Source of the DNA: Caenorhabditis remanei
Taxonomy: Eukaryota; Nematoda; Chromadorea; Rhabditida; Rhabditidae
Assembly (NCBI RefSeq): GCF_010183535.1
Contig: NC_071332.1
Location: 18,352,001 to 18,416,000, forward strand
Length of the DNA: 64,000 nt
Direction: 5' to 3'
The notes beneath the pieces were generated by a model. That model ran no database searches and was not told the origin of the DNA. It was given only the letters and a program-made list of their open reading frames with translations. Of this stretch, positions 6,707 through 64,000 are shown piece by piece. Every line of letters starts with the position of its first letter. The first letter of the stretch is position 1. Both the position numbers and the translations under genes were made by a program.

Positions 6707-7796
6707 TCAGAAATTCTTATTCTCGATAACCATTACGTATTCATTGTAGTCAATTTTAAACTCAAAAAACTTTCTCGAATTGTCAGGAATTTTGAAGTGG
6801 AAGAGGAGGATGGACGGATCTCCTGATTCCACTTCCTCACAGAACGATTCGAGGTGTTCAGTGCAGTCGGCGAGATCGTATGAATCGATAGTGCATGACT
6901 CGAAGTTGGTAGACGTGGAGAAAAACTGCAATGAAGAAATTGACATCCATAACATTCGAGAGAAATAATTTGTTTACTGGAAAAAACTTACATCTCTGAG
7001 ATTTATCAAGAAATCCTCTCTCAAACCACTTGCAAGAATCACAAAACGTTTGAAATGCATGAGAAATTCCGATGGGAAGTCATCGAAACAATCTTGAGTA
7101 GTGAGTTCTTCCGCTTGCTTCCATTGTTCCAGATTCGCAATTTTCCTGACTGTTTTCAATGCTTCTTCCGGTTCCCGATCGTCAAGGTCTTTTACGAAAA
7201 CTCCAATATTCCCGAGTTCCTTCGGTTTCAAGCAGGGAAGAATCGATAGAAGATTCTTCTGAAGATATTCAGGCGATTCCGCATGGACAAACAGTTTTTT
7301 GACGTGTATTTGGTGATTCAGATCTGGCAGAAGGCTATTCAATCCGAATAGTCTCATTCTATCATTGGAGTAATAGCTGACGATCAATTTATCCAATCGC
7401 AATTTTGGATTTTTCAGTGCAATCGACAAATCACTCAAAGCGATTTTCTCATAATCTTCGCTTCGGAGAATGCAGGATTCGTCAGTAACGATACGCACGC
7501 CCTTCTTATCCCAATTCTCGCTTGTATACACAACTCTTTTGTCGTTATACCAACAAATGATATACGAATCTGTCATATCAATCTGGATCGATTTGTACCC
7601 AATTTTCTGTTCATCGACGAGAGAACGCAGGTTTTTTGACACTTTTCGGAGAGTCAATCTGAAATCTCGAATAAATTTAGTTCGTTCCCTGCGGTTTTTG
7701 GGTTACTCACTGCTCTTTGAGATCACATTTCTCAATGATTTTCCCAATTGCATCAGTGGGCAAATTGGAGAATTCGAGTGCAGACGTAGTCGACAT
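6707..7796 (-). CDS. F-box/FTH protein FB5
   Basis: Exons 7796-7711, 7658-6992 and 6925-6707, 323 aa. F-box then FTH; the FTH region has LNHQIHVKKLFVHAE, LSILPCLKPKELGNIGV and LEQWKQAEELTTQDCFDDF. It pairs with FB6 (shared YYSNDRMRLF and LKPKEL), so these two form a subgroup. There are no lesions. The donor of the FTH exon is GTAAGT, in contrast to GTTAGT in FB1-FB4. Confidence 0.87.
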
Positions 7797-33917: not shown

Positions 33918-34393
33918 TGTAAGGTATTCGGATGAATCCCTTAGGCCTGCTCGGCTCTTTGTCTAAAGCCCACAGTTGTTTCACCAAATTTGACACTTTC
34001 AGAAGTCAATAATTTCGCGTCGAAACTGCTCGCCTCCGCTCACAGTCTCGTCGCCTCAATTCCTAGGCCTGCAACTGTCATCGCCGCCGTCGTCGTGTCT
34101 GCTGCCTCTCTCGTCGCCAACGCTCTCTCGCCGCCACCGCCACAACGACACTCCGCCACCACGAGGACTGTTTGACCTGGCGCTCAACCGCCATGGCGCC
34201 AATCTATGGATTTACGAACTCCGCCCCCTTTTCACCACTATATAAGCTGAGAATTCCCTTTCTCTTGGCAGTTCTTACGGGTGAACTTGCACCAGTCCCT
34301 ATTTCTCTTTGTAACCCTCTTTCACCCTTTCACTTGTAACATTTGAGTAATAATAAACTAGTAGTTGAGTATAAAAGTCTTGCGTTGCTTACT
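33918..34393 (+). repeat. 5' LTR
   Basis: 476 bp starting TGTAAGG and ending GCTTACT (short inverted ends TGTAAG/CTTAC). It holds a TATA-like TATATAAG near 34239 and AATAAA at 34352-34357, so promoter and polyadenylation signals are in the usual order. A 61-codon open frame inside is low-complexity and repeated in both LTRs, and is not called as a gene. Confidence 0.9.
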
Positions 34394-35350
34394 GGTAGCA
34401 GCGACTTAGGTTTTTCTTATTTTTTTAGATTAACTTATAAAGACCCACCCACGCTTCCCACCCTTTGTATTCTTCTTACTCTTTTATTGATTTTTGCCTC
34501 TGGCTCGGGACCATAACCCGATTTTATTCTCTCTTGTTACTTCCTTTCACTCTCTTTTTCTAGACAGGGCCCGTTTAGTTTAAGTTCTTTTTGTGTTAGG
34601 TTAGGTGTTAGATGTTTAGGTTACCCATGTAGGGAATTAGGGCGTAGGACATTGCTCTCTATTGTATGCCTCTACGTTAATTTTTGTCACGTATCTTTTC
34701 GTAGCCGGCTCCCTAGATAGCAGTGAGCACGGGTTCCAAGACCTGTGCGCTGTCGAAGGAGTGCAGGTTGATAAATTCACAATACTGTTTTATCAAACCA
34801 ATTGCCCCTTCCCAAAAACCCGGTTTTTTCGACCGATATTCTCTCAAATCGGTCAGCACGGATCGACACTCTTCATGCTCCTGGTTCTCGAAGAATTTTC
34901 TGGAAATCCCGTCGCGAAGGATCTTCTGGATGCCGTCATCGAGTGACAACCATGGAACGAGCAACAATTCGGGAGAGAGCTGTTTTGGTCGTCGGCAAGC
35001 TGGGATCGTTGGTTTCGATGCTCAAGGAACACGTTTTCGAATTTGGAGTCGCCTTCAATCGACTTGGAAACTTTTAGATGGGGATCAAGCACGCGGGTTC
35101 TGAAACCTGCGCGATCGCCTCTATTAGTGTGTTCACGCTGCATTGGATTTTCATCCAACAAAACCATATCAGGTTAGCGAATCTATTCGCGAAGCCGTTT
35201 CATAGGTCAACTGCTGGAGTTGACGATGTCGATAGTGTGAGATTGCACACTCGCCGGACGTCTTCTACAACAATGGCAAAGACTACAACGTCTCCGAAAC
35301 GTCGGAAAATCGTGACAGCTGGGGATTCGGCGGGAGCCAATTCCCTTTCT

Positions 35351-35809
35351 GAGAAGACCAGATCTGCTGGTGATGCCGAGAAGACCAGACCTACTGGTGA
35401 TGCTAAGAAGACCAGACCTACTGGTGATGCTGAGAAGACCAGACCTGCTGGTGATGCTGAGAAGACCAGACCTGCTGGTGATGCTGAGAAGACCAGATCT
35501 GCTGGTGATGCTGAGAAGACCAGACCTGCTGGTGATGCTGAGAAGACCAGACCTGCTGGTGATGCTGAGAAGACCAGACCTGCTGGTGATGCCGAGAAGA
35601 CCAGACCTACTGGTGATGCTATGAAGACCAGACCTACTGGTGATGCTATGAAGACCAGACCTACTGGTGATGCTGAGAAGACCAGACCTACTGGTGATGC
35701 TAAGAAGACCAGACCTTCTGGTGATGACAAGATGCCCAGGTCAACTGGAGAGGACAAGATGCCCAGATCAACTGGAGATGAAAAGATGCCCAGGTCTACT
35801 GGAGATGGG
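35351..35809 (+). repeat. 27-bp minisatellite in the retrotransposon leader
   Basis: Fourteen tandem 27-bp units (35351-35728), encoding EKTRPAGDA-type 9-residue repeats on the plus strand, are followed by three diverged units (KMPRSTGDE-type). They lie inside an open frame from 35078 to 35950. Because the unit is a multiple of three, all six frames tend to stay open, including a 185-codon antisense frame. This makes protein coding uncertain; it may be structural or a length-variable spacer. Confidence 0.8.
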
Positions 35810-37859
35810 ATGCTTGGAGCATCGGAAGATGAGATGCTTGGAGCATCGAAAGTTAAGATGCTCGAAGCATCGGATTCTGTTAAATGTCCGGGACATCGGA
35901 GTCATGTGGGTACTGAAACCCTGGAGTCTACTCTTCTGGAAACGAAGTAGTAGAGGCACTCACAGCTTCCTGTATGCGAAGGTTCTACGACCGACGCGGA
36001 AGTTGCCAAAAAAACCTGAAAGATATTCGCCATCGTGCTGTTAGTGGATCGAAGTATGGATCCCTGGACTATAATCGCCCTCGTGCTGAAATCGAGGATC
36101 AACGGATGGATCCCCGGAAACATTCGACATCGTGCTGTTTTAGTGGATCGACAGAAGGATCCCTGGAAAATCACGTCTCAGTGAGGAACCCTGGAAACTA
36201 CGCTTCTGGAAACGAAGCAGTAAAGGTATTCACGGCTTCCAGTACGCGAAGATTCTATGACCAACGCGGAAGTTGACTTTAAGTCTGAAAACATGATAGT
36301 TGGCTCTAACGCCGTCTCGATCCCACTTGGCTTGACAAGCAACGTGGAAGACGTCACAATGGTCGGTACAACATCTACTCAACCGACATGAAAGGAATCT
36401 GGTTCCGATAACCCTCCTGGAAACGGAGACGAATGGATGAAGCTGATTGGCCAGACGGAACGACTTCATCGGTGGAAAGTCGTCAGAAGTCTCAACAAGG
36501 CAAAGTTGGGAGCAACAACAAAGAAGGATCTCCACGAGAACATGGTGGAGCGAAGTACTTTGGCTCTTCTGGAAACGAAGACCTGTAAGCAAGTCTCGCT
36601 TACGCGGTTTCAGCATGCGAAGGTTCCATGACCAACGCGGAAACTGAAACATAAAGCTGTAAACTTGGAGCTTAGTTTTGAGCCGATGGAATCGCTCTCG
36701 ACTTGGCAATCGATGCAAACGAGACCGTTTTTGGCAAGAATGACAACTGAACTATGGTCAGCTCTGGAAACGCTTCATCTTCCAGGCGTGAAATCGTCAA
36801 GCGTTATGGGAATTAAAACTCCCAGATTCGGTGTGCTTCAACTCGAGATGGTTCAGAACCATTGGTCCATCGTCTTACGAAAAGCAGAAGAAGACGTGCG
36901 ATGAAATTCGTGAGAAGTATTCTGAACGGAAACCAACTCGGTTTGGCAACCAAAGTGGACGATACAGAGTCCGGAACATCAGTGTTCGAAGACTGAAGAA
37001 GAAATCCAGTCGTGACATCTCTCCCGGAAACGGAGAAGGACAGAAGACTCGTATCAGTCGAGAAAAGAGGGCTCGCAAAAGTCGGATCACAAACCCAGAA
37101 GACGTGTCGGGCTGAGAACAACTACGTTGGGTTCAACAGAAGTAGGCACTGAAGAGACAATGTGCGAGCAACGAAGCCCGTGTTGTGGTAACAACAAACT
37201 GGGGGGCGTCCCTTATAGCCCGCACAGGAAAACACATGCTGGATGCTCAATCGGCCAATTGAAGCATCGGAGAATCTTCGAGACGATAATGGCAACCTGC
37301 ACTGATCGGAGAAGTCCTGAAGACGTGGAAAATCGCCTGAAAACTCTGCAAATAGCCAGTCTTGGATCGTTTTGGACGTTCGACGACAAGAACGAAGGAC
37401 ATTTCACTCCTGAAATTTTGGTGTCGCCGAAATTTTTCACTAGAATCGCTGGTTCTCGATGCGATTTGGCTCAATTCCATTCGGTCGCCTACCCTGGAAT
37501 TTTAATTCGTGGCATACGGTATTAAAGGCGCGCCGACTTTTGCAAAGGAGAGGTCTCGCACCGACAACCGACAGTGACGCGGGAAACGCAAGGAATTGCA
37601 AAATTCGTTTGGTTTTTCGTCCTAAAAACCAATGATCGCTCATTTTTCGAGCATGTTTCGATCAAATGTGGTGTCACACGAGCTTTGTCATTTTTCGCTC
37701 GTCACATTTAACGGTTTCATAACCTGGAAGGCGTGTTCGGACACCAGTTTTATGTGCCAATCGCCTCGAAAATCATTTATCCGCGTGTTCTAACGTTTCT
37801 TTGTGGTATTTGTCTTACATAATACCTGAATTCTTCCAGTCTACCTCATCCTTGGGAAG

Positions 37860-39913: not shown

Positions 39914-40389
39914 TGTAAGGTATTCGGATGAATCCCTTAGGCCTGCTCGGCTCTTTGTCTAAAGCCCACAGTTGTTTCACCAAATTTGACACTTTCAGAA
40001 GTCAATAATTTCGCGTCGAAACTGCTCGCCTCCGCTCACAGTCTCGTCGCCTCAATTCCTAGGCCTGCAACTGTCATCGCCGCCGTCGTCGTGTCTGCTG
40101 CCTCTCTCGTCGCCAACGCTCTCTCGCCGCCACCGCCACAACGACACTCCGCCACCACGAGGACTGTTTGACCTGGCGCTCAACCGCCATGGCGCCAATC
40201 TATGGATTTACGAACTCCGCCCCCTTTTCACCACTATATAAGCTGAGAATTCCCTTTCTCTTGGCAGTTCTTACGGGTGAACTTGCACCAGTCCCTATTT
40301 CTCTTTGTAACCCTCTTTCACCCTTTCACTTGTAACATTTGAGTAATAATAAACTAGTAGTTGAGTATAAAAGTCTTGCGTTGCTTACT
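39914..40389 (+). repeat. 3' LTR
   Basis: 476 bp, same sequence as the 5' LTR by eye along its whole length. It is preceded directly by the polypurine tract and followed by the ATCC duplication and FB18 exon sequence (GAATTTGGAATCG). Confidence 0.9.
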
Positions 40390-52901: not shown

Positions 52902-54792
52902 TCAATACATTCTAAAATTAGCTTTAAAGATTTCAATGCTAGATGTGGAAAGGCGAAAGACAAGATTGGGATACAGTTCTGATTTAAGACGCGGGGCTGA
53001 AGAATGATTATATTGAAGGCGCAGTGCGTTCTTGACAGCTTCCTGATCATATCTTACAACTGTTACTCTACAGTACTTGAAATTTGCCGAATTGGAGAGC
53101 ACCTGTGAATGAAATACTTATAAATGCTTTCCGATTCTATTTAACTAACACTTGTCAAATTCATCACGTCTTCCATCGAAAGCGATTTAATATTGATTAA
53201 AAACCTGCCGAAATGGAAGAAATGCTCGATCGATGTGTCTAGAAGTTTCCCGCTCAAAAAAATTTCAGCATTTCTCCATTGTTCCGTTTCAACCAATTCA
53301 TGAATAGTCGAGAGCTCTTCGTCGTCTTTGTTTTCGGACACCGTCAAATATTTGAGTGTTCCAGGTTTGACACATTTCACCACAGTAATGATATCCTTGT
53401 CCGTCAGAAAATGAATGAGAAATTCTTTCACGTGGATTTTATGACTCAAAGAGTTGAAAAGATCGCGAAACATTTGATTGTTTTGATTATGCGTATCATC
53501 GGAAAATACAAGTTGAACATAGTCCAATTGAAGTTTAGGATTTTTCAGCAACATTTCCAAATAGTTGAACGCCACTTTTTGGTAATCGTTGTCCTTAAAC
53601 TTGTAGAAATGATCAGGGAAATCTGAAGGAGGGTCCACGTCGTTAAGATCAGTAAAAATCACTGGCACTTCATTGTTCAGATTCAAGGAGATCTGGTTTT
53701 CTTCACATTCGACTATGATATGTGTAATTGGTGGTTTTGAGTGATCGAGAATGCTTCGGAGGCTATGTGACACGTTTCGGAGTTGAACACTGAAAAATTA
53801 AGAAAATTATATCATCAATTGGAATATATGAATGCTTACTATGACGTCAAATCACACTTTTCCGCGATATCAGAGACCACATCTTCTGACAAATTAGAGA
53901 ATGTAACTTGACTGAATAAGTGTCCATTTTTGAATCGTTTGAACCAATACGCATGATCTTCTTTATCGATTTTATGGTCTTTGAATGCTTTACACAAGTC
54001 ATTCATTGATTTTTGAGAAGTTTTTCCATTGATGACATCTGAAAGAATGCATCCACGAATGTCTGGAATCGGGAGATCATCTCTGAAGATACATAATTGT
54101 AAAAATCATCCACAAAACATGATTTCTTACCTTTCTTTTTGTTTGTAATACACTTGGAACCAATATTTATATTCTTCATATGAAATCGCTTCTTTTCCCA
54201 TTGCTTTACACAGCTTTTCATATTTTTTATACGATGTTTCAGCGGATTCCCACAGACGAAGATTATAGAGAACGAATGCAGATAGATCGATTGGAGAATC
54301 CATGAATTTGCATTTGTCAGCAATTCGAATCTTGTTCATTTTTTCCATTTTGCACATTTTCATAAATAGTTCCAACGAATGCTTGGCAGATGGAATGAGG
54401 AATCGATCGGCAACTTCCAGAAGTTTCTCGGCGTTTTCTTCTGGAAAAATGAATATTTGTTCAGTTTAATAAATTTAATTTTGTACCTGTCGGCTTGATC
54501 GGAGATGGATAAAGAAGACTCAAAGTCGCTGCGAAATCTTCGAATTTGACATCTTCAATCGGAATTTCTTGAATTGATTTTTCTTTGAATTCTCCATTGA
54601 AAAGAGTGTTGAAGTATTCAGAATGGAATGAGAGAACCTGAAAATAGTGCAACATTTCATTTTTTAAATCGAAATGAAACTTACCGCTTTGTTAACATGT
54701 AACTTTTTTCCGTCAACCACCAGAATTGCATCAGTTTTGTCCGATTTAGCAAATGTCGACTCGTAAATACTCATTGCTGGAGTCACAAACAT
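52902..54792 (-). CDS. BTB-HTH-HTH-F-box-FTH fusion protein BF1
   Basis: Six exons: 54792-54685, 54637-54487, 54440-54131, 54082-53840, 53789-53150 and 53102-52902; 550 aa. Residues 1 to about 125 are a BTB domain (DKTDAILVVDGKKLHVNK, VLSFHSEYFNTLFNGEFKEK, AEKLLEVADRFLIPSAKHSL). Exon 3 continues without interruption from the BTB tail (KIRIADKCKF) into HTH 1 (MDSPIDLSAFVLYNLRLW). HTH 2 (RGCILSDVINGKTSQKSMND), F-box (FSNLSEDVVSDIAEKCDL) and FTH (NPKLQLDYVQLVF, LSHKIHVKEFLIHF, VKPGTLKYLTV) follow. Phases agree throughout. By family knowledge it could contact CUL3 through BTB and SKP1 through the F-box; that dual role is inference. The F-box proline after NL is replaced by serine. Confidence 0.82.
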
Positions 54793-55349
54793 TTTTCGCT
54801 GAAAAAATGATTGAATCCATGTTTTCTGTGAATTCTCCTATCAACACGTGTAATTTTCGTAAATTAAATGCACACAAATATACTCAAAGCGGAAAGAACG
54901 CATTATATTGATAAAGTCAATAACAAAAAACAAAACAGTTTTATTGTACTCACTCCTGAAATATTGTACTCAAAAACAGGTTTCTATGAGCCTTTCCTTG
55001 AAGTACTTACAGTTTTCATACAAATTCAAGATTTGTGCCTCCGAAAAACTGATTTTTTCAGACAGTTTTCGTGAAAATGTTATTACTTTTTTTTTGAATT
55101 TTTCGGTCAAAACTTTTCGAAAAAAAGGTTTGTCGATTTTTTCGGTACGAAATTTTCAAAAAATAAAGTTTTTCGAAAATTGTTCGGAAAAGTTTTTCGC
55201 ACGGCCCTGGTTCCGGCGCCGAGTAGGTAATTGTCGACAAGAAATAATAATTTTAAGAAGCGAAGCAAACGCTTGAGAACATAACGACAAAAAACAATCG
55301 AATACATTTCACAGCAACGAAATATCATTAAATCAAACATCAGTTACAT
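54793..55349. other. Intergenic region, duplicated at 59839-60396
   Basis: No gene is supported here. The block is almost the same as 59839-60396, part of the 5.05-kb duplication. It includes a GCG...CGC pair near 54892, an AT-rich poly(T) tract near 55085, and GAAGCGAAGCAAACGCTTGA near 55258, which can form a short AAGCG/CGCTT hairpin like that in other spacers. Confidence 0.6.
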
Positions 55350-56730
55350 TTAAATATCAGCTATTTCAATAGAATTTGGGTAAAGATAGAATAAAAGATT
55401 TGGAAAGAGTTCTGAGAAACAGCCCTGATGAAGACGTAGCGCGTTCATGACAGCTTCCTGATCGTATCTTTTAACTTTTACTCGACAGCTCTCGAAATTG
55501 GGCGAATTGGAAAGAGCCTGAAAATCAATAATTTAGAAGTAATTTCAGATTCTATTCAACTGACGTGGGACAGATTCAGTACGTCTTCAATCGACATCGA
55601 CACAATATTGATATAAAACTCGTCGAAATGGAAGAAATGTTCGATCGATGTGTCTAGAAGATTCTCGTACGAGAACAATTTAGCTTGTTTCCATTGTTCC
55701 GTTCCAATCAATTCATCAATATTCGACAGCTCTCCGCCTTTGCACCCGAACACTATCAATCGTTCGAGTATTCCAGGTTTCATACATTTTAGCACATTAG
55801 TGATATCTTCGTACTTTGGAACAGAAAGGAAAAAGTGTTCCACGTGGATTTTATGGCTCAATGAGGTGAGAAGATCACGAAAGATTGGGAAGCTTTTCTT
55901 TGAGATATCATTGCGAATTTCAACTTGAAGAAAGTTCAATTGAAGTTTCGGATTTTTCAGTAACATCTCCAAATAGTTGAATGCGATCTTAGTGTAATCA
56001 TCGTCCACAAACTTGCACAAATGTTTAAAATATACTTTAGAAAAGTCCACGCCTTTACGATCAGTAAAATATACTAATATTTGATTGTTCAGCTTGAAAG
56101 AGACGTGGTTTCCTCCACATTCGACTATGATATGTGTAATTGGTGGTTTTGTGTGATCGACAATGCTTCGAAGGTCATGTGACACGTTTCGGAGTTGAAA
56201 ACTGAAAAAAATTGATAACTATTTCCATTAATTGGATTTTATAATTGCTTACAATGACACCAAATCACATTTCTCCACAATTTCAGTTATCAAATCTTCC
56301 GGCAATTTGGAAAATGTAACTTGATTGAATAAGTCACCGTTTTCAAATCTTTTGAACCAATAGCCATGATCTTCCTTATCGATTTTATGGTCTTTGAATG
56401 TTTTACACAAGTTATCGATTGATTTTTCTGCAGATTTTCCGTTGATGACATCAGAAAGGATGCATCCACGAATGTCTGGTTTTGGGAGATCATCTCTAAA
56501 AGAAAAGTGAAACATCTCACCCCACAAAACAAGTTTTCTTACCTTTCTCTTTGTTTGGAATATTTTTCGAACCAATATTTATATTCTTCATATGAAATCG
56601 CTTCTTTTTCCATTGCTTCACTCAGCTTTTCATAGTTTTTATATGAAGTTCCAGCGGATTTCATTTGATAATTGTCATAGAGAATAAGTGCACGAAGATC
56701 GATTGGAGAATCCAGAGGCGGTCGATTCAT
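55350..56730 (-). CDS. HTH-HTH-F-box-FTH protein FB22
   Basis: Exons 56730-56543 (HTH 1: IDLRALILYDNYQMKSAGTS), 56495-56253 (HTH 2 plus F-box: RGCILSDVINGKSAEKSIDN, FSKLPEDLITEIVEKCDLVS), 56201-55565 (FTH: NPKLQLNFLQVEIRN, LSHKIHVEHFFLSV, MKPGILERLIVFG, TEQWKQAKLFSY) and 55517-55350; 411 aa. It is near-identical to FB23 (offset 5046-5047 nt). No BTB exons lie upstream. The frame is intact. Confidence 0.88.
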
Positions 56731-56932
56731 TTTATGAAATGTTCTGTAAAAAATTAATTTGTTAATTTCGAATCACAGGTGCCAGAAAGTAATAGAAGCG
56801 AGTGGAACGCAACAGAAATATCTATTTAAAGATAAAAAAAAAACTAAACTATATTTATTAGAAATGATAACGAAAAACAAAAGTTTAACAAAAGATGTTA
56901 GAACATAATGCCAAGAAACAACAACATGAGTT

Positions 56933-58810
56933 TTATAGAAAAGGATCTGAATAGTCAATGTTCCGAATCAAGAACTCTGATATGTAAAATTGAAGGACAA
57001 GATTTGGATACAGTTCTGACAAATTGTTCTGGTCAAGACGAAGCGCATTCTTGACAGCTTCCTGATCGTATTTTTTAACTTTTATTTGACAGATCTTGAA
57101 ATCTGAATTATTGGAGAGAGCCTGAAAATCAATAATTTATAAATGCTTTCAGATTGTATTCAACTGACGTGTGCCAGATTCAGTGCGTCTTCAATCGAAA
57201 GCGAGATAATATTGATATAAAACTCGTTGAAATGGAAGAAGTGCTCGATTGTTGTGTCTAGAAGTTGTACGATATCAAGGAATTTAGCTTGTTTCCATTG
57301 TTTCATCTCCACCAATTTATCAATACTCGGGAGTTCTTCTTCGTCTTCGGGGTATCCGCCCACCGTCAAATTTTCGAGTGTTCCAGGTTTGACACATTCC
57401 AGCATAGTAATGACATCCTCGTCATTTTCAAAACAAATGACAAAATCTTTCACGTGGATTTTATGACTCAATGAGTTGAGAAGATCACGAAACATTTGAT
57501 TGCTTTTATTATGCTTTTTCTTGGAAAATACAACATCAAAATGGTTCAATTGAAGTTTCGGATTTTTCAGCACCATCTCGAAATTGTAGAATGCCACTTT
57601 CTGGTAATCGTTGTCCTTAAACTTGTAGAAATGAGAAGGGAAATCACAAGGAGGGTCCACGTCGTTAAGATCAGTAAAAATCACTGGCACTTCATTGTTC
57701 AGATTCAAGGAGATCTGGTTTTCTTCACATTCGAATACGATAAGTACGAGTGGTGGTTTTGAGTGATCGAGAATGCTTCGGAAGCCATGTGACACTCTTC
57801 GGAGTTGAAGACTGAAAAAATTAAGATAATTATATCATTAATTGGAATATATGAATGCTTACTATGACGTCAAATCACACGTTCCCGCGATTTCAGAGAT
57901 CACATCTTCCGGCAAATTAGAGAATGTAACTTGACTGAATAAGTGTCCATTTTTGAATCGTTTGAACCAATACGCATGATCTTCTTTATCGATTTTATGA
58001 TTTTTGAATGCTTTAGACAAATCATCAAATGATTTGCTAGCAGATTTTCCATTGATGACATCTGATAGAATGCATCCACGAATGTCTGGAATCGGGAGAT
58101 CATCTCTGAAGATACATAATTGTAAAAATCATCCACAAACATGATTTCTTACCTTTCTTTTTGTTTGTAATACACTTGGAACCAATATTTATATTCTTCA
58201 TATGAAATCGCTTCTTTTCCCATTGCTTCACTCAGCTTTTCATAGTTTTTATATGAAGTTCCAGCGGATTCCCACAGACGAAGATTATAGAGAACGAATG
58301 CAGATAGATCGATTGGAAAATCCATGAATTTGTATTTGTTAGCGATTCGAATCTTGTTCATTTTTTCCATTTTGCACATTTTCATAAATAGTTCCAACGA
58401 ATGCTTGGCAGATGGAATGAGGAATCGATCGGCAAGTTCCAGAAGTTTCTCGGCGTTTTCTTCTGGAAAAATGAGTTTTTTTTGGTTTAATAATTTTAAT
58501 ATTATACCTGTCGGCTTGATTGGAGATGGATAAAGAAGACTCAAAGTCGCTGCGAAATCCTCGAAGTTTACATCTTTGATTGGGATTTCTGGCATCGATT
58601 TTTCTTTGAATTCTCCATTGAAAAGAGTGTTGAAGTATTCAGAATGGAATGAGAGAAACTGAAAATCGAACTTTTTAAATTTTGATTTTAAATGTAACCT
58701 ACCGCTTTGTTAACATGCAACTTCTTTCCCTCAACCACCAGAATTGCATCCGTCTTATCCGATTTAGCAAATGTTGACTCGTAAATACTCAATGCTGGAG
58801 TTTTAGACAT
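56933..58810 (-). CDS. BTB-HTH-HTH-F-box-FTH fusion protein BF2
   Basis: Exons 58810-58703, 58658-58508, 58462-58153, 58105-57863, 57811-57169 and 57121-56933; 547 aa. The domain order is the same as BF1: BTB (KTPALSIYESTFAKSDKTDA, FLSFHSEYFNTLFNGEF), a BTB tail running directly into HTH 1 in exon 3 (KIRIANKYKF then MDFPIDLSAFVLYNL), HTH 2, F-box (FSNLPEDVISEIAGTCDLTS) and FTH (NPKLQLNHFDVVFS, LSHKIHVKDFVICF, VKPGTLENLTV). Intron 2 is 45 nt, a multiple of three and open, so retention would not break the protein. All phases agree. Two independent intact copies argue that the fusion is not a chance model error. Confidence 0.83.
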
Positions 58811-59051
58811 TTTTCGCTGAAAAATTATTGATTTTACCAAAAAAAGGAGATTGTAGTCGCGTTACAGGTCTCAGAAAGTAATAGAAGCGGATAGAACGCA
58901 AGAGAAGCAACAAAAATCAAACAAAAAACTTTCTCTTTTTTCAAAAATACAACAAGAAAACCAACAGAAATTATGAAATTTTAACAACAATTTCAGTTAA
59001 TCGAAGCCAGCAAGAGTTAAATAATAACTCAAAAGGTCTAACTTTGCCTTA

Positions 59052-59838
59052 TCAGATAAAAGCTTGTAGACTGCGTGCCTTTTGATTCCTTTGAACGAGA
59101 TTGCATTGAATTGCCTGATTCCATGATCCATCAGACACAGGGATGCAAAACGCAAGGTCGCTTAAACGCGCTCCGTCGCTCAGCGGTTGGCACGGTGCCA
59201 AAAACTGACTTGGCTGAGTGCCAAGTTCAAGTTTAGCGTGTGTTTGTTGTATATTTTGATGAAAAACGCGACGCACACGCATCGCGACTCGGTCGGTAAT
59301 TTCAAAACTTTTCGTTGCGGACCTTACGCCTCGCACCCCTGTGTCAGATCGTCGAATTTATATTTGTCGGCGATTCGAATCTTGTCCATTTTATCCTTAC
59401 TGCTTGTTTTCACGTATAGTTCCAATGTATATTTGACAGAGGAAATGAGGAATCGATCAGCAATTTCCAGAAGTCGCTCGACGTTTTTATCTGGAAAAAT
59501 GGGGGTTTTCCAGTTTTGACATCATGATTTTATACCTGTCGGCTTGATCGGAGATGGATAAAGAAGACTCAAAGTCGCTGCGAAATCTTCGAATTTGACA
59601 TCTTTGATTGGGATTTCTGGCATCGATTTTTCCTTGAATTCTCCATTGAAAAGCGTGTTGAAGTATTCAGAATGGAATGAGAGAACCTGAAAATCGAACT
59701 TTTTAAATTTTGATTTTAAATGTAACCTACCGCTTTATTAACATGCAACTTCTTTCCCTCAACAACCAGAATTGCATCAGTTTTGTCCGATTTAGCAAAT
59801 GTCGACTCGTAAATACTCATTGCTGGAGTCACAGACAT
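59052..59838 (-). pseudogene. BTB/POZ gene BTB3 with a MITE in its last exon
   Basis: Exons 59838-59731, 59686-59536 and 59490 to about 59052. The BTB fold is complete (DKTDAILVVEGKKLHVNK, ERLLEIADRFLISSVKYTLE). After KIRIADKYKFDDL a 207-bp MITE brings a stop within about seven codons. Without it the tail would read on to GIRQF...RSLQAFI, about 161 aa in phase, aligning with BTB1 KLELAGKHELENLLSHALKL. Up to KYKF the protein matches the fusions BF1 and BF2, so this gene is the unfused form and shows where the fusion breakpoint lies. A shortened BTB protein may still be produced. Confidence 0.78.
59137..59343. mobile_element. 207-bp MITE in BTB3
   Basis: The ends CACAGGGATGCAAAACGCAA and, reversed, CACAGGGGTGCGAGGCGTAA are an imperfect TIR of about 25-30 bp. 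The flanks repeat TCAGA (59132-59136 and 59344-59348), a 5-bp candidate duplication. It is GC-richer than its surroundings (GCTCCGTCGCTCAGCGGTTG) and has no coding capacity. The superfamily is uncertain. Confidence 0.72.
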
Positions 59839-60396
59839 TTTTCGCTGAAAAATGATTGAATCCTTATTTATGTGAATTCTCCTATCAACAAGTGTAATTT
59901 TTCGTAAAATAAATGCACACAAATATACTCAACGCGGAAAGAACGCATTATATTGATAAATTCAATAACAAAAAACAAAACAGTTTTATTGTACTCACTC
60001 CTGAAATATTGTACTCAAAAACAGGTTTCTATGAGCCTTTCCTTGAAGTACTTACAGTTTTCATACAAATTCAAGATTTTTGCCTCCGAAAAACTGATTT
60101 TTCAGACAGTTTTCTTGAAAATGTTTTTTTTTTAATTTTTCGGTTTTTCGGTCAAAACTTTTCGAAAAAAAGGTTATTCGATTTCTTCTGTACGAAATTT
60201 TCAAAAAAAAAAAGTTTTTCGAAAATTGTTCGGAAAAGCTTTTCGCACAGCCCTGGTTCTGACGCCGAGTAAGTAATTGTCGGCAAGAAATAATAATTTT
60301 AAGAAGCGAAACAAACGCTTTGGGAACAAAACGACAAGGAACAATCGAATACATTTCACAGCAACAAGATATCAATAAATTAAACATTAGTTACAT

Positions 60397-61776
60397 TTAA
60401 ATATCAGCTATTTCAATAGAATTTGGGTAAAGATAGAATAAAAGATTTGGAAAGAGTTCTGAGAAGCAACCCTGATGAAGACGTAGCGCGTTCATGACAG
60501 CTTCCTGATCGTATCTTTTAACTTTTACTCGACAGCTCTCAAAATTGGGCGAATTGGAAAGAGCCTGAAAATCAATAATTTAGAAGTAATTTCAGATTTC
60601 ATTCAACTGACGTGGGACAGATTCAGTACGTCTTCAATCGACATCGACACAATATTGATGTAAAACTCGTCGAAATGGAAGAAGTGCTCGATCGATGTGT
60701 CTAGAAGATTCTCGTACGAGAACAATTTAGCTTGTTTCCATTGTTCCGTTTCAATCAATTCATCAATATTCGAGGGCTCTCCGTCGTTGTATCCGAACAC
60801 TATCAATCGTTCGAGTGTTCCAGGTTTCATACATTTTAGCACATTAGTGATATCTTCGTACTTTGGAACAGAAAGGAAAAAGTGTTCCACGTGGATTTTA
60901 TGGCTCAATGAGGTGAGAAGATCACGAAAGATTGGGAAGCTTTTCTTTGAGATATCATTGCGAATTTCAACTTGAAGAAAGTTCAATTGAAGTTTCGGAT
61001 TTTTCAGTAACATCTCCAAATAGTTGAATGCGATCTTAGTGTAATCATCGTCCACAAACTTGCACAAATGTTTAAAATATACTTTAGAAAGATCCACGCT
61101 TTTACGATCAGTAAAATATACTAATATTTGATTGTTCAGCTTGAAAGAGACGTGGTTTCCTCCACATTCAACTATGATATGTGTAATTGGTGGTTTCGAG
61201 TGATCGACAATGCTTCGGAGGCCATGTGACACGTTTCGGAATTGAAAACTGAAAAAATTGATAACTATTTCCATTAATTGGAATTGATAATTGCTTACAA
61301 TGACACCAAATCACATTTCTCCACAATTTCAGTGATCAAATCTTCCGGCAAATTGGAAAATGTAACTTGATTGAATAAGTCACCGTTTTCAAATCTTTTG
61401 AACCAATAGTCATGATCTTCTTTATCGATTTTATGATGTTTGAATGTTTTACACAAGTTATCGATTGATTTTTCTGCAGATTTTCCATTGATGACATCAG
61501 AAAGAATGCATCCACGAATGTCTGGTTTTGGGAGATCATCTCTAAAAGAAAAGTGAAATATCTCACCCCACAAAACAAGTTTTCTTACCTTTCTCTTTGT
61601 TTGGAATATTTTTCGAACCAATATTTATATTCTTCATATGAAATCGCTTCTTTTTCCATTGCTTCACTCAGCTTTTCATAGTTTTTATATGAAGTTCCAG
61701 CGGATTTCATTTGATAATTGTCATAGAGAATGAGTGCACAAAGATCGATTGGAGAATCCGGAGGCGGTCGATTCAT
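60397..61776 (-). CDS. HTH-HTH-F-box-FTH protein FB23
   Basis: Exons 61776-61589, 61541-61299, 61248-60612 and 60564-60397; 411 aa with the same exon lengths as FB22 (188, 243, 637, 168 nt). The intron before the FTH exon is one base shorter. Differences are few, for example HHKIDKEDHDYW against DHKIDKEDHGYW, and FGYNDGEPS against FGCKGGELS in the FTH domain. The frame is intact. It is a recent tandem duplicate. Confidence 0.88.
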
Positions 61777-61817
61777 TTTATGAAATGTTCTGTAAAAGAT
61801 AATCTGTGAAAATCGAA

Positions 61818-61984
61818 CAGTGATGGGCGCGAGTGAAGCTGAGCTTCACTCTAAAATCCACGGGGGGGAGAAAAAATGTCTGCGTCTCTCGTTATCGGTA
61901 ATGGTGGGGCGCGCTCTCTCGCACTCTCTTCCCCCGCGCTGCCGCCACTGGGGAGTCACTTTTTTCACTCCGCGCCCACCACTG
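61818..61984. mobile_element. 167-bp hAT-like MITE upstream of FB23
   Basis: The ends CAGTGATGGGCGCGAGTGAA and, reversed, CAGTGGTGGGCGCGGAGTGA form TIRs that begin CAGTG, as many hAT elements do. The flanks AAATCGAA and AGTTCGAA match at 6 of 8 positions. It contains GGGGGGGAG and CCCCCGCGC runs. It interrupts the block AATTTCGAATCACAGG seen intact upstream of FB22, which pinpoints the insertion. Confidence 0.75.
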
Positions 61985-62559
61985 AGTTCGAATCACAGGT
62001 GTCAAAAAGTAATAGAAGCGATCAGAACGCAAAAGAAAAAATGATCGAATTTTCAGGATAAAGTGTTGAATTTAAGCTAAAAATCAAGTTTTAACAGTGA
62101 AGAGGTGGAAATTTATAATTTTTGTTAATGGGAACAGTCGAAAAATGATGATTTTAAGCACATTTCCGAGAACAATATTCAAAATTTGCAGCTTCCCGCC
62201 ATTCGGTGTTTGCGGACTTTGTCGTCGCTTACCGTACTCCAAACAGTTTTTTATAAAATATTGAGCGATTCCAACGCTTTCGGAATAAGTGAAAATACAC
62301 AACTTATAATAAAAAAAAACAAAATTTCATTAAAAACTATTAGTAATCTTAACAGCAGACACAATAAAGAAGAATTCAATAAAAATATTCGAATTTTTGA
62401 AATTTTCAAAAAATAAAGTTTTTCGCACAGCCCTGGTTCCAGCGCCGAGTAAGTAATTGCCAACAAGAAATAATAATTTTAAGAAGCGAAGCAAACGCTT
62501 TGAGAACATAATGTTAAAGAACAATCGAGTACATTTCACAGCAACAAAATATCATTAAA

Positions 62560-64000
62560 TCAAACATCAGTTACATTCAAATATATTTCAATACAATTTG
62601 GGGAAAGATAGAAGACAAGATTTGGATAGAGTTCGGAGCAATTATACTGATAAATGCGCAGCGCTTTCTCGACAGCTTCCTGATCGTATCTTTTAACGTT
62701 TACTTGACAGATCTTGAAATCGGGTGAATTGGAGACAGCCTGAAAATCAATAATTTAGAAGTAATTTCAGATTTCATTCAACTGACGTGTGACAGATTCA
62801 TCACGTCTTCAGTCGACAACGACACAATATTGATGTAAAACTCGTTGAAATGGAAGAAGTGCTCGATCGATGTGTGTAGAAGTTGATCGCTCGAAAAGAT
62901 TTTAGCTTGTTTCCATTGTTCCATTTCGACCAATTCATCAATAGTCGAGAGTTCTCCGCCTTTGCATCCGAACACTATCAATCGTTCGAGTGTTCCAGGT
63001 TTCACACATTTCAGCACAGCAATTATATCCTCGTCCTTTTGATCATCAAAGAAAATGTGTTCCACGTGGATTTTATGACTCAATGAGCTGAGAAGATCAC
63101 GAAACATTTGATTGCTTTTATTATGCGTATCATTGGAAATTCCAACCCGAAAATTGTACAATTGAAGTTTCGGATTTTTCAGCACCACTTCCAAATAGTT
63201 GAATGCCACCTTCGCGTAATCGTCGTCCACAAACTTGTAGAAATGTTCACCAAAATATGAAGAAGGGTTCACGCCGTTCATATCAGTATAACAGACTGTT
63301 ACTTTACAGTTTAGATCGAAGGTGAAGTGGTTTTCTCCAAAACGAACTGCGATAAATGTAAGTGGTGGTTTTGAGTGATCGAGAATGCTTCGGAGGCCAC
63401 GGGACACTTTTCGGAGTTGAAGACTGAAAAAAATAAGATAATTATTAGCATTAATTGAAATTTATACTATAAATTTTATAATAGCTTACTATGCCTTAAT
63501 ATCATATTTCTCCACAATTTCAGTTATCACATCTTCGGGCAAATCGGAGAATGTAATTGGATTGAATAGGTGTCCATTTTGAAATCGTTGGTACCAGTAA
63601 TCATGATCTTCCCTATTGATTTTATGTTGTTTGAATGCTTTACACAAGTCATCCATCGATTTTCCAGCTGATTTTCCATTGATGAAATCTAATAGAATGC
63701 ATCCACGAATGTCAGGAATCGGGAGATCATCTCTGAAATTACAGAATTCTAAAATATCATCCACAAAACATGTTTTCTTACCTTCCTCTTTGTTTGGAAT
63801 ACTTTTTGAACCAATATTTATAGTCGTTAAATGAAAACGTTGGTTTTCTCATTGCTTCACACAACTTTTCATAATTTTCATATGATTTCTCAGCAGTTTT
63901 CCATTGAGAGCTATCATAAATAATGAGTGCACAAATATCGATTGGAGAATCCTTGAATTTGTATTTGTCGGCATTTCGAATCTTGTCAATTTCATCCATA
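62560..64000 (-). CDS. BTB-HTH-HTH-F-box-FTH fusion BF3, 5' part outside the window
   Basis: Exons from beyond 64000 to 63782, then 63732-63490, 63423-62787 and 62739-62560. The incomplete exon starts inside the BTB tail (KIRNADKYKFKDSPID) and runs into HTH 1 (CALIIYDSSQWKTAEKSYEN), exactly the join seen in BF1 and BF2. HTH 2 (RGCILLDFINGKSAGKSMDD), F-box (FSDLPEDVITEIVEKYDI) and FTH (NPKLQLYNFRVGISN, LSHKIHVEHIFF, VKPGTLERLIV, MEQWKQAKIFSS) follow with the correct phases. The BTB domain itself must lie beyond the edge and is inferred from the tail. Confidence 0.78.

What the first reader, a model, noticed from the sequence alone, without database searches (positions are those of the whole stretch)
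52902..64000. Three genes fusing a BTB/POZ domain to HTH-HTH-F-box-FTH
In BF1 (exon 54440-54131), BF2 (58462-58153) and BF3 (exon ending 63782) the coding frame runs without a splice site from the BTB tail (KIRIA-KYKF) into the mariner-type HTH. Exon phases agree across all six exons. BTB domains bind CUL3 and F-boxes bind SKP1-CUL1, so one chain would hold adaptors for two cullin ligases. I know of no described protein family with this order. It could bridge the two ligase types, cross-regulate them, or have lost one function.
Basis: partly seen in the sequence, partly recalled or inferred. Interest (0 to 1): 0.87.

Follow-up and report, generated by a model that had tools for sequence, protein, structure and literature searches.

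The report
BTB gene fused onto F-box genes
In the worm Caenorhabditis remanei a BTB gene and an F-box gene have been joined in frame into a small gene family that would carry, in a single protein, the docking modules of two different protein-disposal machines; whether it is made and works that way is untested.

Summary
BF1, BF2 and BF3 are six-exon genes whose third exon runs without stop or splice site from the BTB tail into the mariner-type HTH. The junction exon occurs 7 times in the genome: 3 here, 3 in a duplicate cluster 0.58 Mb away, 1 on contig C4. Six of 7 genes are open; one has a stop in the F-box. Three fused proteins with this junction come from another C. remanei assembly. All nine complete proteins tested pass Pfam cut-offs for BTB, HTH_48, F-box and FTH. 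The HTH replaced the BTB parent's second 3-box helix and BACK tail, so CUL3 binding is probably weakened. I read it as an A2-type SCF receptor with an added BTB pairing arm. No RNA-derived sequence across the junction was found. The low BTB dN/dS (0.22) is confounded by exon exchange with an unfused BTB gene. Searches of the held papers showed no description of this architecture.

The parts
54685..54792 (-). BF1 exon 1 (BTB; ATG six bases behind TTTTTTCAG, an SL-acceptor-like site)
54487..54637 (-). BF1 exon 2 (BTB core, holds FKE = phi-x-E)
54131..54440 (-). BF1 exon 3: BTB tail running into HTH1; junction codon ATG at 54303-54301
53840..54082 (-). BF1 exon 4 (HTH2 and first part of F-box)
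53150..53789 (-). BF1 exon 5 (rest of F-box, FTH)
52902..53102 (-). BF1 exon 6 (C terminus)
56933..58810 (-). BF2, six exons: 58810-58703, 58658-58508, 58462-58153, 58105-57863, 57811-57169, 57121-56933; 547 aa, open
62560..64000 (-). BF3: exon 3 from 64091 (outside) to 63782, exons 63732-63490, 63423-62787, 62739-62560; exons 1-2 lie beyond the window; 542 aa, open
55350..56730 (-). unfused A2 F-box gene (HTH-HTH-F-box-FTH, starts MNRPPLDSPIDL behind its own TTTTTTACAG), the non-BTB parent type
60397..61776 (-). second unfused A2 F-box gene, same structure
58997..59838 (-). unfused BTB gene (exons 59838-59731, 59686-59536, from 59490) of the BTB parent type, its tail split by about 208 bases (59136-59343) that the duplicate cluster lacks

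Best explanation
A single in-frame gene fusion, since duplicated. In the mixed BTB / F-box arrays of this chromosome a BTB gene of the BTB-3-box-BACK type was joined, after codon 132 of about 180, to an A2 F-box gene that lost its own start and first 5-6 codons, probably by deletion of what lay between two neighbours (inferred). The hybrid keeps the BTB gene's start and acceptor and encodes BTB, HTH, HTH, F-box, FTH in one ~545-aa chain (shown at DNA level; transcription inferred). Most likely working: an SCF substrate receptor of the A2 kind (F-box to an SKR protein and CUL1; HTH and FTH to targets) that has gained an N-terminal BTB arm for pairing with itself or with unfused BTB siblings; CUL3 contact through the BTB remains possible but weakened, because the second 3-box helix and BACK tail were replaced by the HTH (inferred).
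Against: No ORF from an RNA-type contig across the junction in three protein searches. In four genomic copies an ATG stands at the junction, and exon 3 has in-frame ATGs before it in all 7 (by eye), so a BTB-less product is possible. The BTB dN/dS of 0.22 (0.15-0.31) is confounded: against the unfused BTB gene at 59838, exon 1 is 90.7-96.3% identical in 5 of 7 copies and exon 2 90.7-95.4% in 6 of 7, but exon 3a only 78.8-86.1%; exon 3a alone gives 0.45, and the six pairs of M-type copies sum to 16 nonsynonymous against 3 synonymous differences there. F-box and FTH dN/dS are near 1 in the fusions (0.84 and 0.94). HTH_48 scores are lower in the fusions (54.3-70.4 bits) than in P0006 (86.8). One of 7 copies carries a stop in the F-box.
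Confidence: 0.45

Rival explanations
1. Two-cullin bridge: the BTB holds CUL3 and the F-box holds SKR-CUL1 at the same time, so one target meets two ligases.
For: phi-x-E kept as FKE in 6 of 7 copies, aligned on SPOP's MEE; F-box over cut-off in 9 of 9; chains from CUL3 and from SKP1 complexes both listed for one model.
Against: Second 3-box helix and BACK tail are gone; a passage of PMC3616122 gives SPOP BTB alone a far weaker CUL3 affinity than BTB-BACK.
Confidence: 0.13
2. CUL3 adaptor with a fading F-box: the BTB has taken over the link to the ligase, HTH and FTH are the substrate arm.
For: BTB is the most constrained part (dN/dS 0.22) and the F-box looks less constrained in fusions (0.84, interval 0.40-2.06) than in 5 unfused A2 genes (0.36, 0.19-0.76); one copy has a stop inside the F-box.
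Against: Intervals overlap; the BTB value is confounded by exon exchange; F-box scores of the fusions (22.2-37.5 bits) spread around that of one unfused sibling (31.8); 3-box/BACK lost.
Confidence: 0.13
3. BTB-directed SCF: the fused BTB pairs with unfused BTB siblings and delivers them to SCF for degradation, a built-in control of CUL3 adaptors.
For: Exon 2 of 6 of 7 fused copies and exon 1 of 5 of 7 are 90.7-96.3% identical to the unfused BTB gene of the window, apparently kept so by exon exchange; F-box proteins that take BTB dimers as targets are known (FBXL17: listing, titles of solved complexes).
Against: No interaction data; the similarity may be only recent ancestry and gene conversion; BF3 exon 2 is 78.8% identical, exon 1 of the C4 copy and Bb3 80.6-81.5%; the neighbouring BTB genes of this type are damaged in both clusters.
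Confidence: 0.14
4. Passenger chimera: recombination in a fast-turning array gave the A2 gene a BTB promoter and start; the BTB part has no role, or only BTB-less isoforms matter.
For: Other BTB-A2 junctions occur nearby: a gene with only the first ~21 BTB codons in front of the HTH (L009 about 6114-5833) and an out-of-frame A2-to-BTB exon-1 junction in the duplicate cluster. F-box genes are very numerous in C. remanei (1426; PMC8665587, passages).
Against: BTB part open and without length change in 7 of 7 copies and present in the three fused proteins of the other assembly.
Confidence: 0.15

Closest known systems
A2 F-box family of Caenorhabditis (HTH-F-box-FTH; Thomas 2006, known to me here only through passages of PMC12062965)
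   Same: Two Mos1-type HTH stretches, F-box, FTH; splice phases of the shared exons as in the unfused neighbours.
   Different: A complete BTB domain stands in front, the MNRPP start is gone, and the start site and acceptor are those of a BTB gene.
BTB-3-box-BACK proteins of the C. remanei array (CRE_09861, CRE_09858), SPOP-like without MATH
   Same: BTB exons 1-2 and the first part of exon 3; phi-x-E motif; first post-BTB helix.
   Different: Second 3-box helix and BACK tail replaced by HTH-HTH-F-box-FTH.
FBXL17 and other F-box proteins that recognise BTB domains (titles and listings only)
   Same: They connect SCF with BTB proteins.
   Different: There BTB and F-box are on separate chains; here on one. 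No sequence kinship was tested.

Membership tests
A2 F-box family (HTH-F-box-FTH) | Mos1-type HTH N-terminal of the F-box | tested here: met
   HTH_48, 2 stretches, 54.3-70.4 bits, cut-off 24.1, in 9 of 9 proteins
A2 F-box family (HTH-F-box-FTH) | F-box over the curated cut-off | tested here: met
   22.2-37.5 bits, cut-off 20.5, 9 of 9; the seventh genomic copy, Bb3, has a stop there and was not scanned
A2 F-box family (HTH-F-box-FTH) | C-terminal FTH domain | tested here: met
   91.2-98.7 bits, cut-off 22, 9 of 9
A2 F-box family (HTH-F-box-FTH) | binds an SKP1-related (SKR) protein | not testable with these tools
   SKR-1 is a top predicted interactor of the C. elegans F-box proteins tested in PMC12062965 section 10; not tested for the fusion
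CUL3 adaptor of the BTB-3-box-BACK type | BTB fold | tested here: met
CUL3 adaptor of the BTB-3-box-BACK type | phi-x-E motif | tested here: met
   FKE in 6 of 7 genomic copies, FKD in BF3; by eye FKD in P0002, FKE in P0003 and P0004
CUL3 adaptor of the BTB-3-box-BACK type | complete 3-box and BACK helices after the BTB | tested here: not met
CUL3 adaptor of the BTB-3-box-BACK type | binds CUL3 | not testable with these tools
   no binding data
one expressed fusion gene | transcript spanning BTB to FTH | tested here: inconclusive
   no ORF from an RNA-type contig across the junction; these databases are not an RNA survey, and one search listed 120 of 183 hits

The most novel reading that the evidence does not exclude
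One polypeptide in which a BTB taken from a CUL3-adaptor gene and an SCF F-box work together: the BTB pairs with the closely similar unfused BTB proteins of the same arrays and puts them, or the CUL3 ligases built on them, under SCF control (or holds both cullins at once), with exon exchange keeping the pairing surfaces matched.
Probability: 0.2. Interest if true: 0.85.

Novelty: new variant of a known kind. Interest (0 to 1): 0.6.

Why it matters
BTB and F-box adaptors are two large, fast-evolving receptor families that feed CUL3 and CUL1 ligases in nematodes. A duplicated gene family that joins the two in one chain would be a natural experiment on whether the two ligase classes can be wired together, and it gives a clear test: does one protein bind an SKR protein, CUL-3, both, or only its own BTB siblings? 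It also shows how mixed arrays can make new receptors by in-frame joining.

Tried and rejected
Annotation merge: rejected for the BF genes. P0013 has the same domain content, but at its locus (L028) the BTB frame runs on to a stop near 6860, an AATAAA follows and the A2 gene starts afresh behind TATCAG, so the model needs an intron over all this; most likely two genes. P0012 and P0016 carry a full BTB tail before the HTH, P0015 joins parts of neighbours in the other order, and P0023 of C. tropicalis (920 aa) reads as three joined tandem genes (by eye; their DNA was not checked). Operon with two cistrons: rejected, there is no intergenic stretch inside exon 3, 310 nt in 7 of 7 copies.

Further fusions in the genome: six long partial matches were fetched (six of 99 matches other than the seven); none holds HTH_48 and the four whose frames I listed go on as ordinary BTB tails.

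Constraint on the BTB as proof of post-fusion function: tried, then withdrawn as proof. Exons 1, 2 and 3a have different kinships and exons 1-2 resemble the unfused gene at 59838, so part of the low dN/dS may have been earned in unfused genes. Pairs of copies are not independent. Synonymous divergence of the BTB part (0.31) exceeds that of HTH1, HTH2, F-box and FTH (0.14-0.23) but not that of exon 6 (0.33).

Transcript evidence: searched with the whole BF1 protein, a 281-column profile across the junction and a 158-column profile of exons 2-4. P0155 spans the junction but reads through intron 2 and is therefore genomic. Annotation of this assembly: of the fused copies only Bb1 appeared as a fused model (P0001, GCK72_021183, cut before exon 6); BF1-BF3 and the C4 copy did not appear.

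Other species: among the hits listed (73; 120 of 183; 13), no named protein outside C. remanei shows the junction; I read 28 of the sequences and judged the rest by domain column and coverage. Source organisms of the ena and lgn proteins are unknown. This is not a survey of genomes; C. latens was not searched. Whether the second cluster is a true duplication or a second haplotype left in the assembly could not be settled; the C4 copy and the other assembly do not depend on it. VIA rows were filled by the BTB; the F-box and FTH parts were not folded and searched alone.

Statements that the architecture is not in print rest on searches of the held open-access library only.
Full report
WHERE IT IS. 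The window is bases 18352001-18416000 of contig C5 of a 130.5-Mb genome; C5 is 22,502,457 bases long. Protein P0001 is named Caenorhabditis remanei GCK72_021183 and its longest contig has exactly that length, so the organism is C. remanei. That this is strain PX506, that C5 is chromosome V and C4 chromosome IV, and that CRE_ names belong to strain PB4641 is recalled, not from a call.

ANATOMY. BF1 has six exons on the minus strand: 54792-54685, 54637-54487, 54440-54131, 54082-53840, 53789-53150, 53102-52902, 550 residues, no internal stop. BF2 (547 residues) and BF3 (542 residues) have the same structure; BF3's exon 3 begins 91 bases beyond the window and its exons 1-2 follow outside. Exon lengths 108, 151, 310 and 243 are the same in 7 of 7 genomic copies and the last two differ by multiples of three. 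Introns are 44-66 bases with GT donors and AG acceptors, except Bb2 intron 1 (433) and Bb3 intron 5 (416). In BF1 the BTB sequence KIRIADKCKF runs into MDSPIDL of the HTH at 54303; four genomic copies have M there (BF1, BF2, Bb1, Bb2), three K (BF3, Bb3, C4 copy). The unfused A2 genes at 61776 and 56730 read MNRPP(P/L)DSPIDL behind their own TTTTACAG. TTTCAG stands six bases before the BTB ATG in 7 of 7 copies, and exon 3 holds neither TTTCAG nor AATAAA in any copy. AATAAA does occur at the end of coding exon 1 in four copies (Bb1, Bb2, C4 copy, Bb3), in intron 1 of Bb2 and in exon 5 or 6 of six copies; I take these as chance, but premature ends are not excluded.

COPIES. A search of the genome with the 104-residue junction exon gave 106 matches (150 of 214 candidates scored, so a lower bound), of which 7 cover it to residue 103 or 104: BF1, BF2 and BF3; three at C5:18986455 (Bb1), 18990464 (Bb2) and 18996603 (Bb3); one at C4:24888487 (IV). 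Six of the other long matches were fetched and hold no HTH_48. Bb3 has a TAG at codon 264, inside the F-box, and a repeat in intron 5. The second cluster matches the window cluster in mostly collinear blocks at about 85-96%; a further stretch matches at 96.3% over 5.5 kb. It is either a segmental duplication or an unmerged haplotype. Another C. remanei assembly (CRE_ names, other contigs) holds three fused proteins, P0002 (546 aa), P0003 (580 aa) and P0004 (542 aa), with the same junction; P0003 has two extra stretches near the junction. By eye P0003 is the counterpart of the C4 copy from the FTH on, but its junction is of the other type, which points to exchange between copies. P0155, from an unnamed 606-base contig, holds the fused exon in unspliced form.

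DOMAINS AND FOLD. In 9 of 9 complete proteins (6 genomic, 3 from the other assembly) BTB, HTH_48 (two stretches), F-box and FTH exceed Pfam's cut-offs. The AlphaFold model of P0002, with 58 aligned sequences, has mean pLDDT 88.3 and pTM 0.62: the parts are well formed, their mutual placement is uncertain. The BTB aligns with SPOP, FKE lying on SPOP's MEE; the phi-x-E motif and its part in CUL3 contact are from passages of PMC3616122, its place in SPOP is recalled. Foldseek places CUL3-bound BTB chains high and lists chains of SKP1-SKP2 complexes at ranks 33, 47 and 50 of the 50 shown, with low TM-scores; that these chains are SKP2 is taken from their length. The intact BTB parent, seen in P0081 and P0086, goes on for 48 residues (P0081) after the junction point; its model aligns along its length to SPOP residues 191-363. 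The fusion thus keeps BTB and the first following helix and loses the second 3-box helix and the BACK part. Passages I saw: SPOP BTB alone binds CUL3 far more weakly than BTB-BACK (13 nM; PMC3616122, where the weak value is printed as 1.0 mM in the held text, perhaps for micromolar), and the 3-box groove takes up the CUL3 N terminus (PMC10564622). Hence my reading that CUL3 binding is weakened but not excluded.

SELECTION. Pooled pairwise NG86 over the 7 copies gives dN/dS 0.22 (0.15-0.31) for the BTB part, 0.84 for HTH1, 0.37 for HTH2, 0.84 (0.40-2.06) for the F-box, 0.94 (0.68-1.29) for the FTH and 0.62 for exon 6; five unfused A2 genes give 0.69, 0.17, 0.36 (0.19-0.76), 0.56 (0.43-0.75) and 0.12 for the same parts without BTB (exon 6 from four of them). 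Nine unfused genes were tried: three gave no model and one (T3) has an internal stop; these four were left out. Taken alone this would say that the BTB is the guarded part. But against the unfused gene at 59838 exon 1 is 90.7-96.3% identical in 5 of 7 copies, exon 2 90.7-95.4% in 6 of 7, exon 3a 78.8-86.1%, and synonymous divergence in exons 1-2 (0.34, 0.39) exceeds that of exon 3a (0.21). Exon exchange with unfused BTB genes therefore explains part of the signal. What stands is that the frame is kept: at 0.08 substitutions per site a neutral copy stayed open in 0.5% of simulations, and 6 of 7 are open; exchange between copies weakens this too.

WORKING HYPOTHESIS. In C. elegans SKR-1 is a top predicted interactor of F-box proteins with and without the HTH, in line with the authors' mass spectrometry, and they suggest that the HTH is a protein-binding platform (PMC12062965, section 10). 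The fusion adds a BTB, a fold known for pairing and for CUL3 binding (PMC1257465, passages). The simplest working is an SCF receptor with a BTB pairing arm. Bridging to CUL3, or use of the BTB as bait for unfused BTB proteins, are the bolder versions. Steps shown: the open reading frame, the copies, the domain matches, the predicted folds, the lost helices. Steps inferred: transcription, translation, dimerisation, SKR and CUL3 binding, targets.

NOVELTY. The HTH-F-box-FTH order is known as family A2 (PMC12062965, abstract, passages and one section). The F-box survey PMC8665587, which covered C. remanei, does not contain the words BTB or POZ in the main text; it mentions further domains 'data not shown'. 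PMC12062965 mentions BTB with other partners in the passages shown (12 of 36 places). Exact-phrase searches for proteins with both domains gave five papers; in the passages I opened of three of them none described this architecture, and two (PMC2724416, PMC4358073) I saw only in the listing. PMC12680543 (F-box antidotes in C. tropicalis) I saw in passages; it does not mention BTB. I file the fusion as a new variant of a known kind.

Noticed in passing
L009 about 6114-5833 (C5:18418114-18417833), minus strand: An A2-type gene whose start and first ~21 codons are those of BTB exon 1 (acceptor-like site included), running straight into the HTH: a separate BTB-A2 junction that took the BTB start without the BTB domain.
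   Followed up: partly
C5:18981725-18981502 (L024, about 3725-3502), minus strand: The reverse kind of junction: the HTH2 exon of an A2 gene runs out of frame into BTB exon 1, apparently through a shared CATG; looks like a broken gene. Annotated model P0156 (GCK72_021181) ends there.
   Followed up: partly
window coordinates about 40390-70310 (running past the window's end) and C5:18979802-19000876: Duplicated, mostly collinear blocks at about 85-96% identity 0.58 Mb apart; also about 18.5455-18.5510 and 19.1228-19.1282 Mb at 96.3%. Segmental duplication or second haplotype left in the assembly.
   Followed up: partly
window 59136-59343: About 208 bases split the tail of the unfused BTB gene at 59838; the duplicate cluster lacks them, but its BTB copy has extra bases with an in-frame TAG near the end of exon 1.
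   Followed up: partly
P0012, P0013, P0015, P0016, P0023: Gene models that seem to merge neighbouring BTB and A2 genes; checked in DNA only for P0013, where a stop and AATAAA lie between them. Domain-architecture databases may therefore overcount BTB-F-box proteins.
   Followed up: partly
P0003 against the C4 copy: Counterparts in two assemblies that agree in the FTH part but carry different junction types (MDSPID against KDSPID), which suggests exchange between copies.
   Followed up: no
window 34067-34339 and 40063-40335: The same 90-residue open frame, letter for letter, occurs twice about 6 kb apart; a long open frame with repeated KTRPTGDAE-like units (35078-35950) lies between.
   Followed up: no
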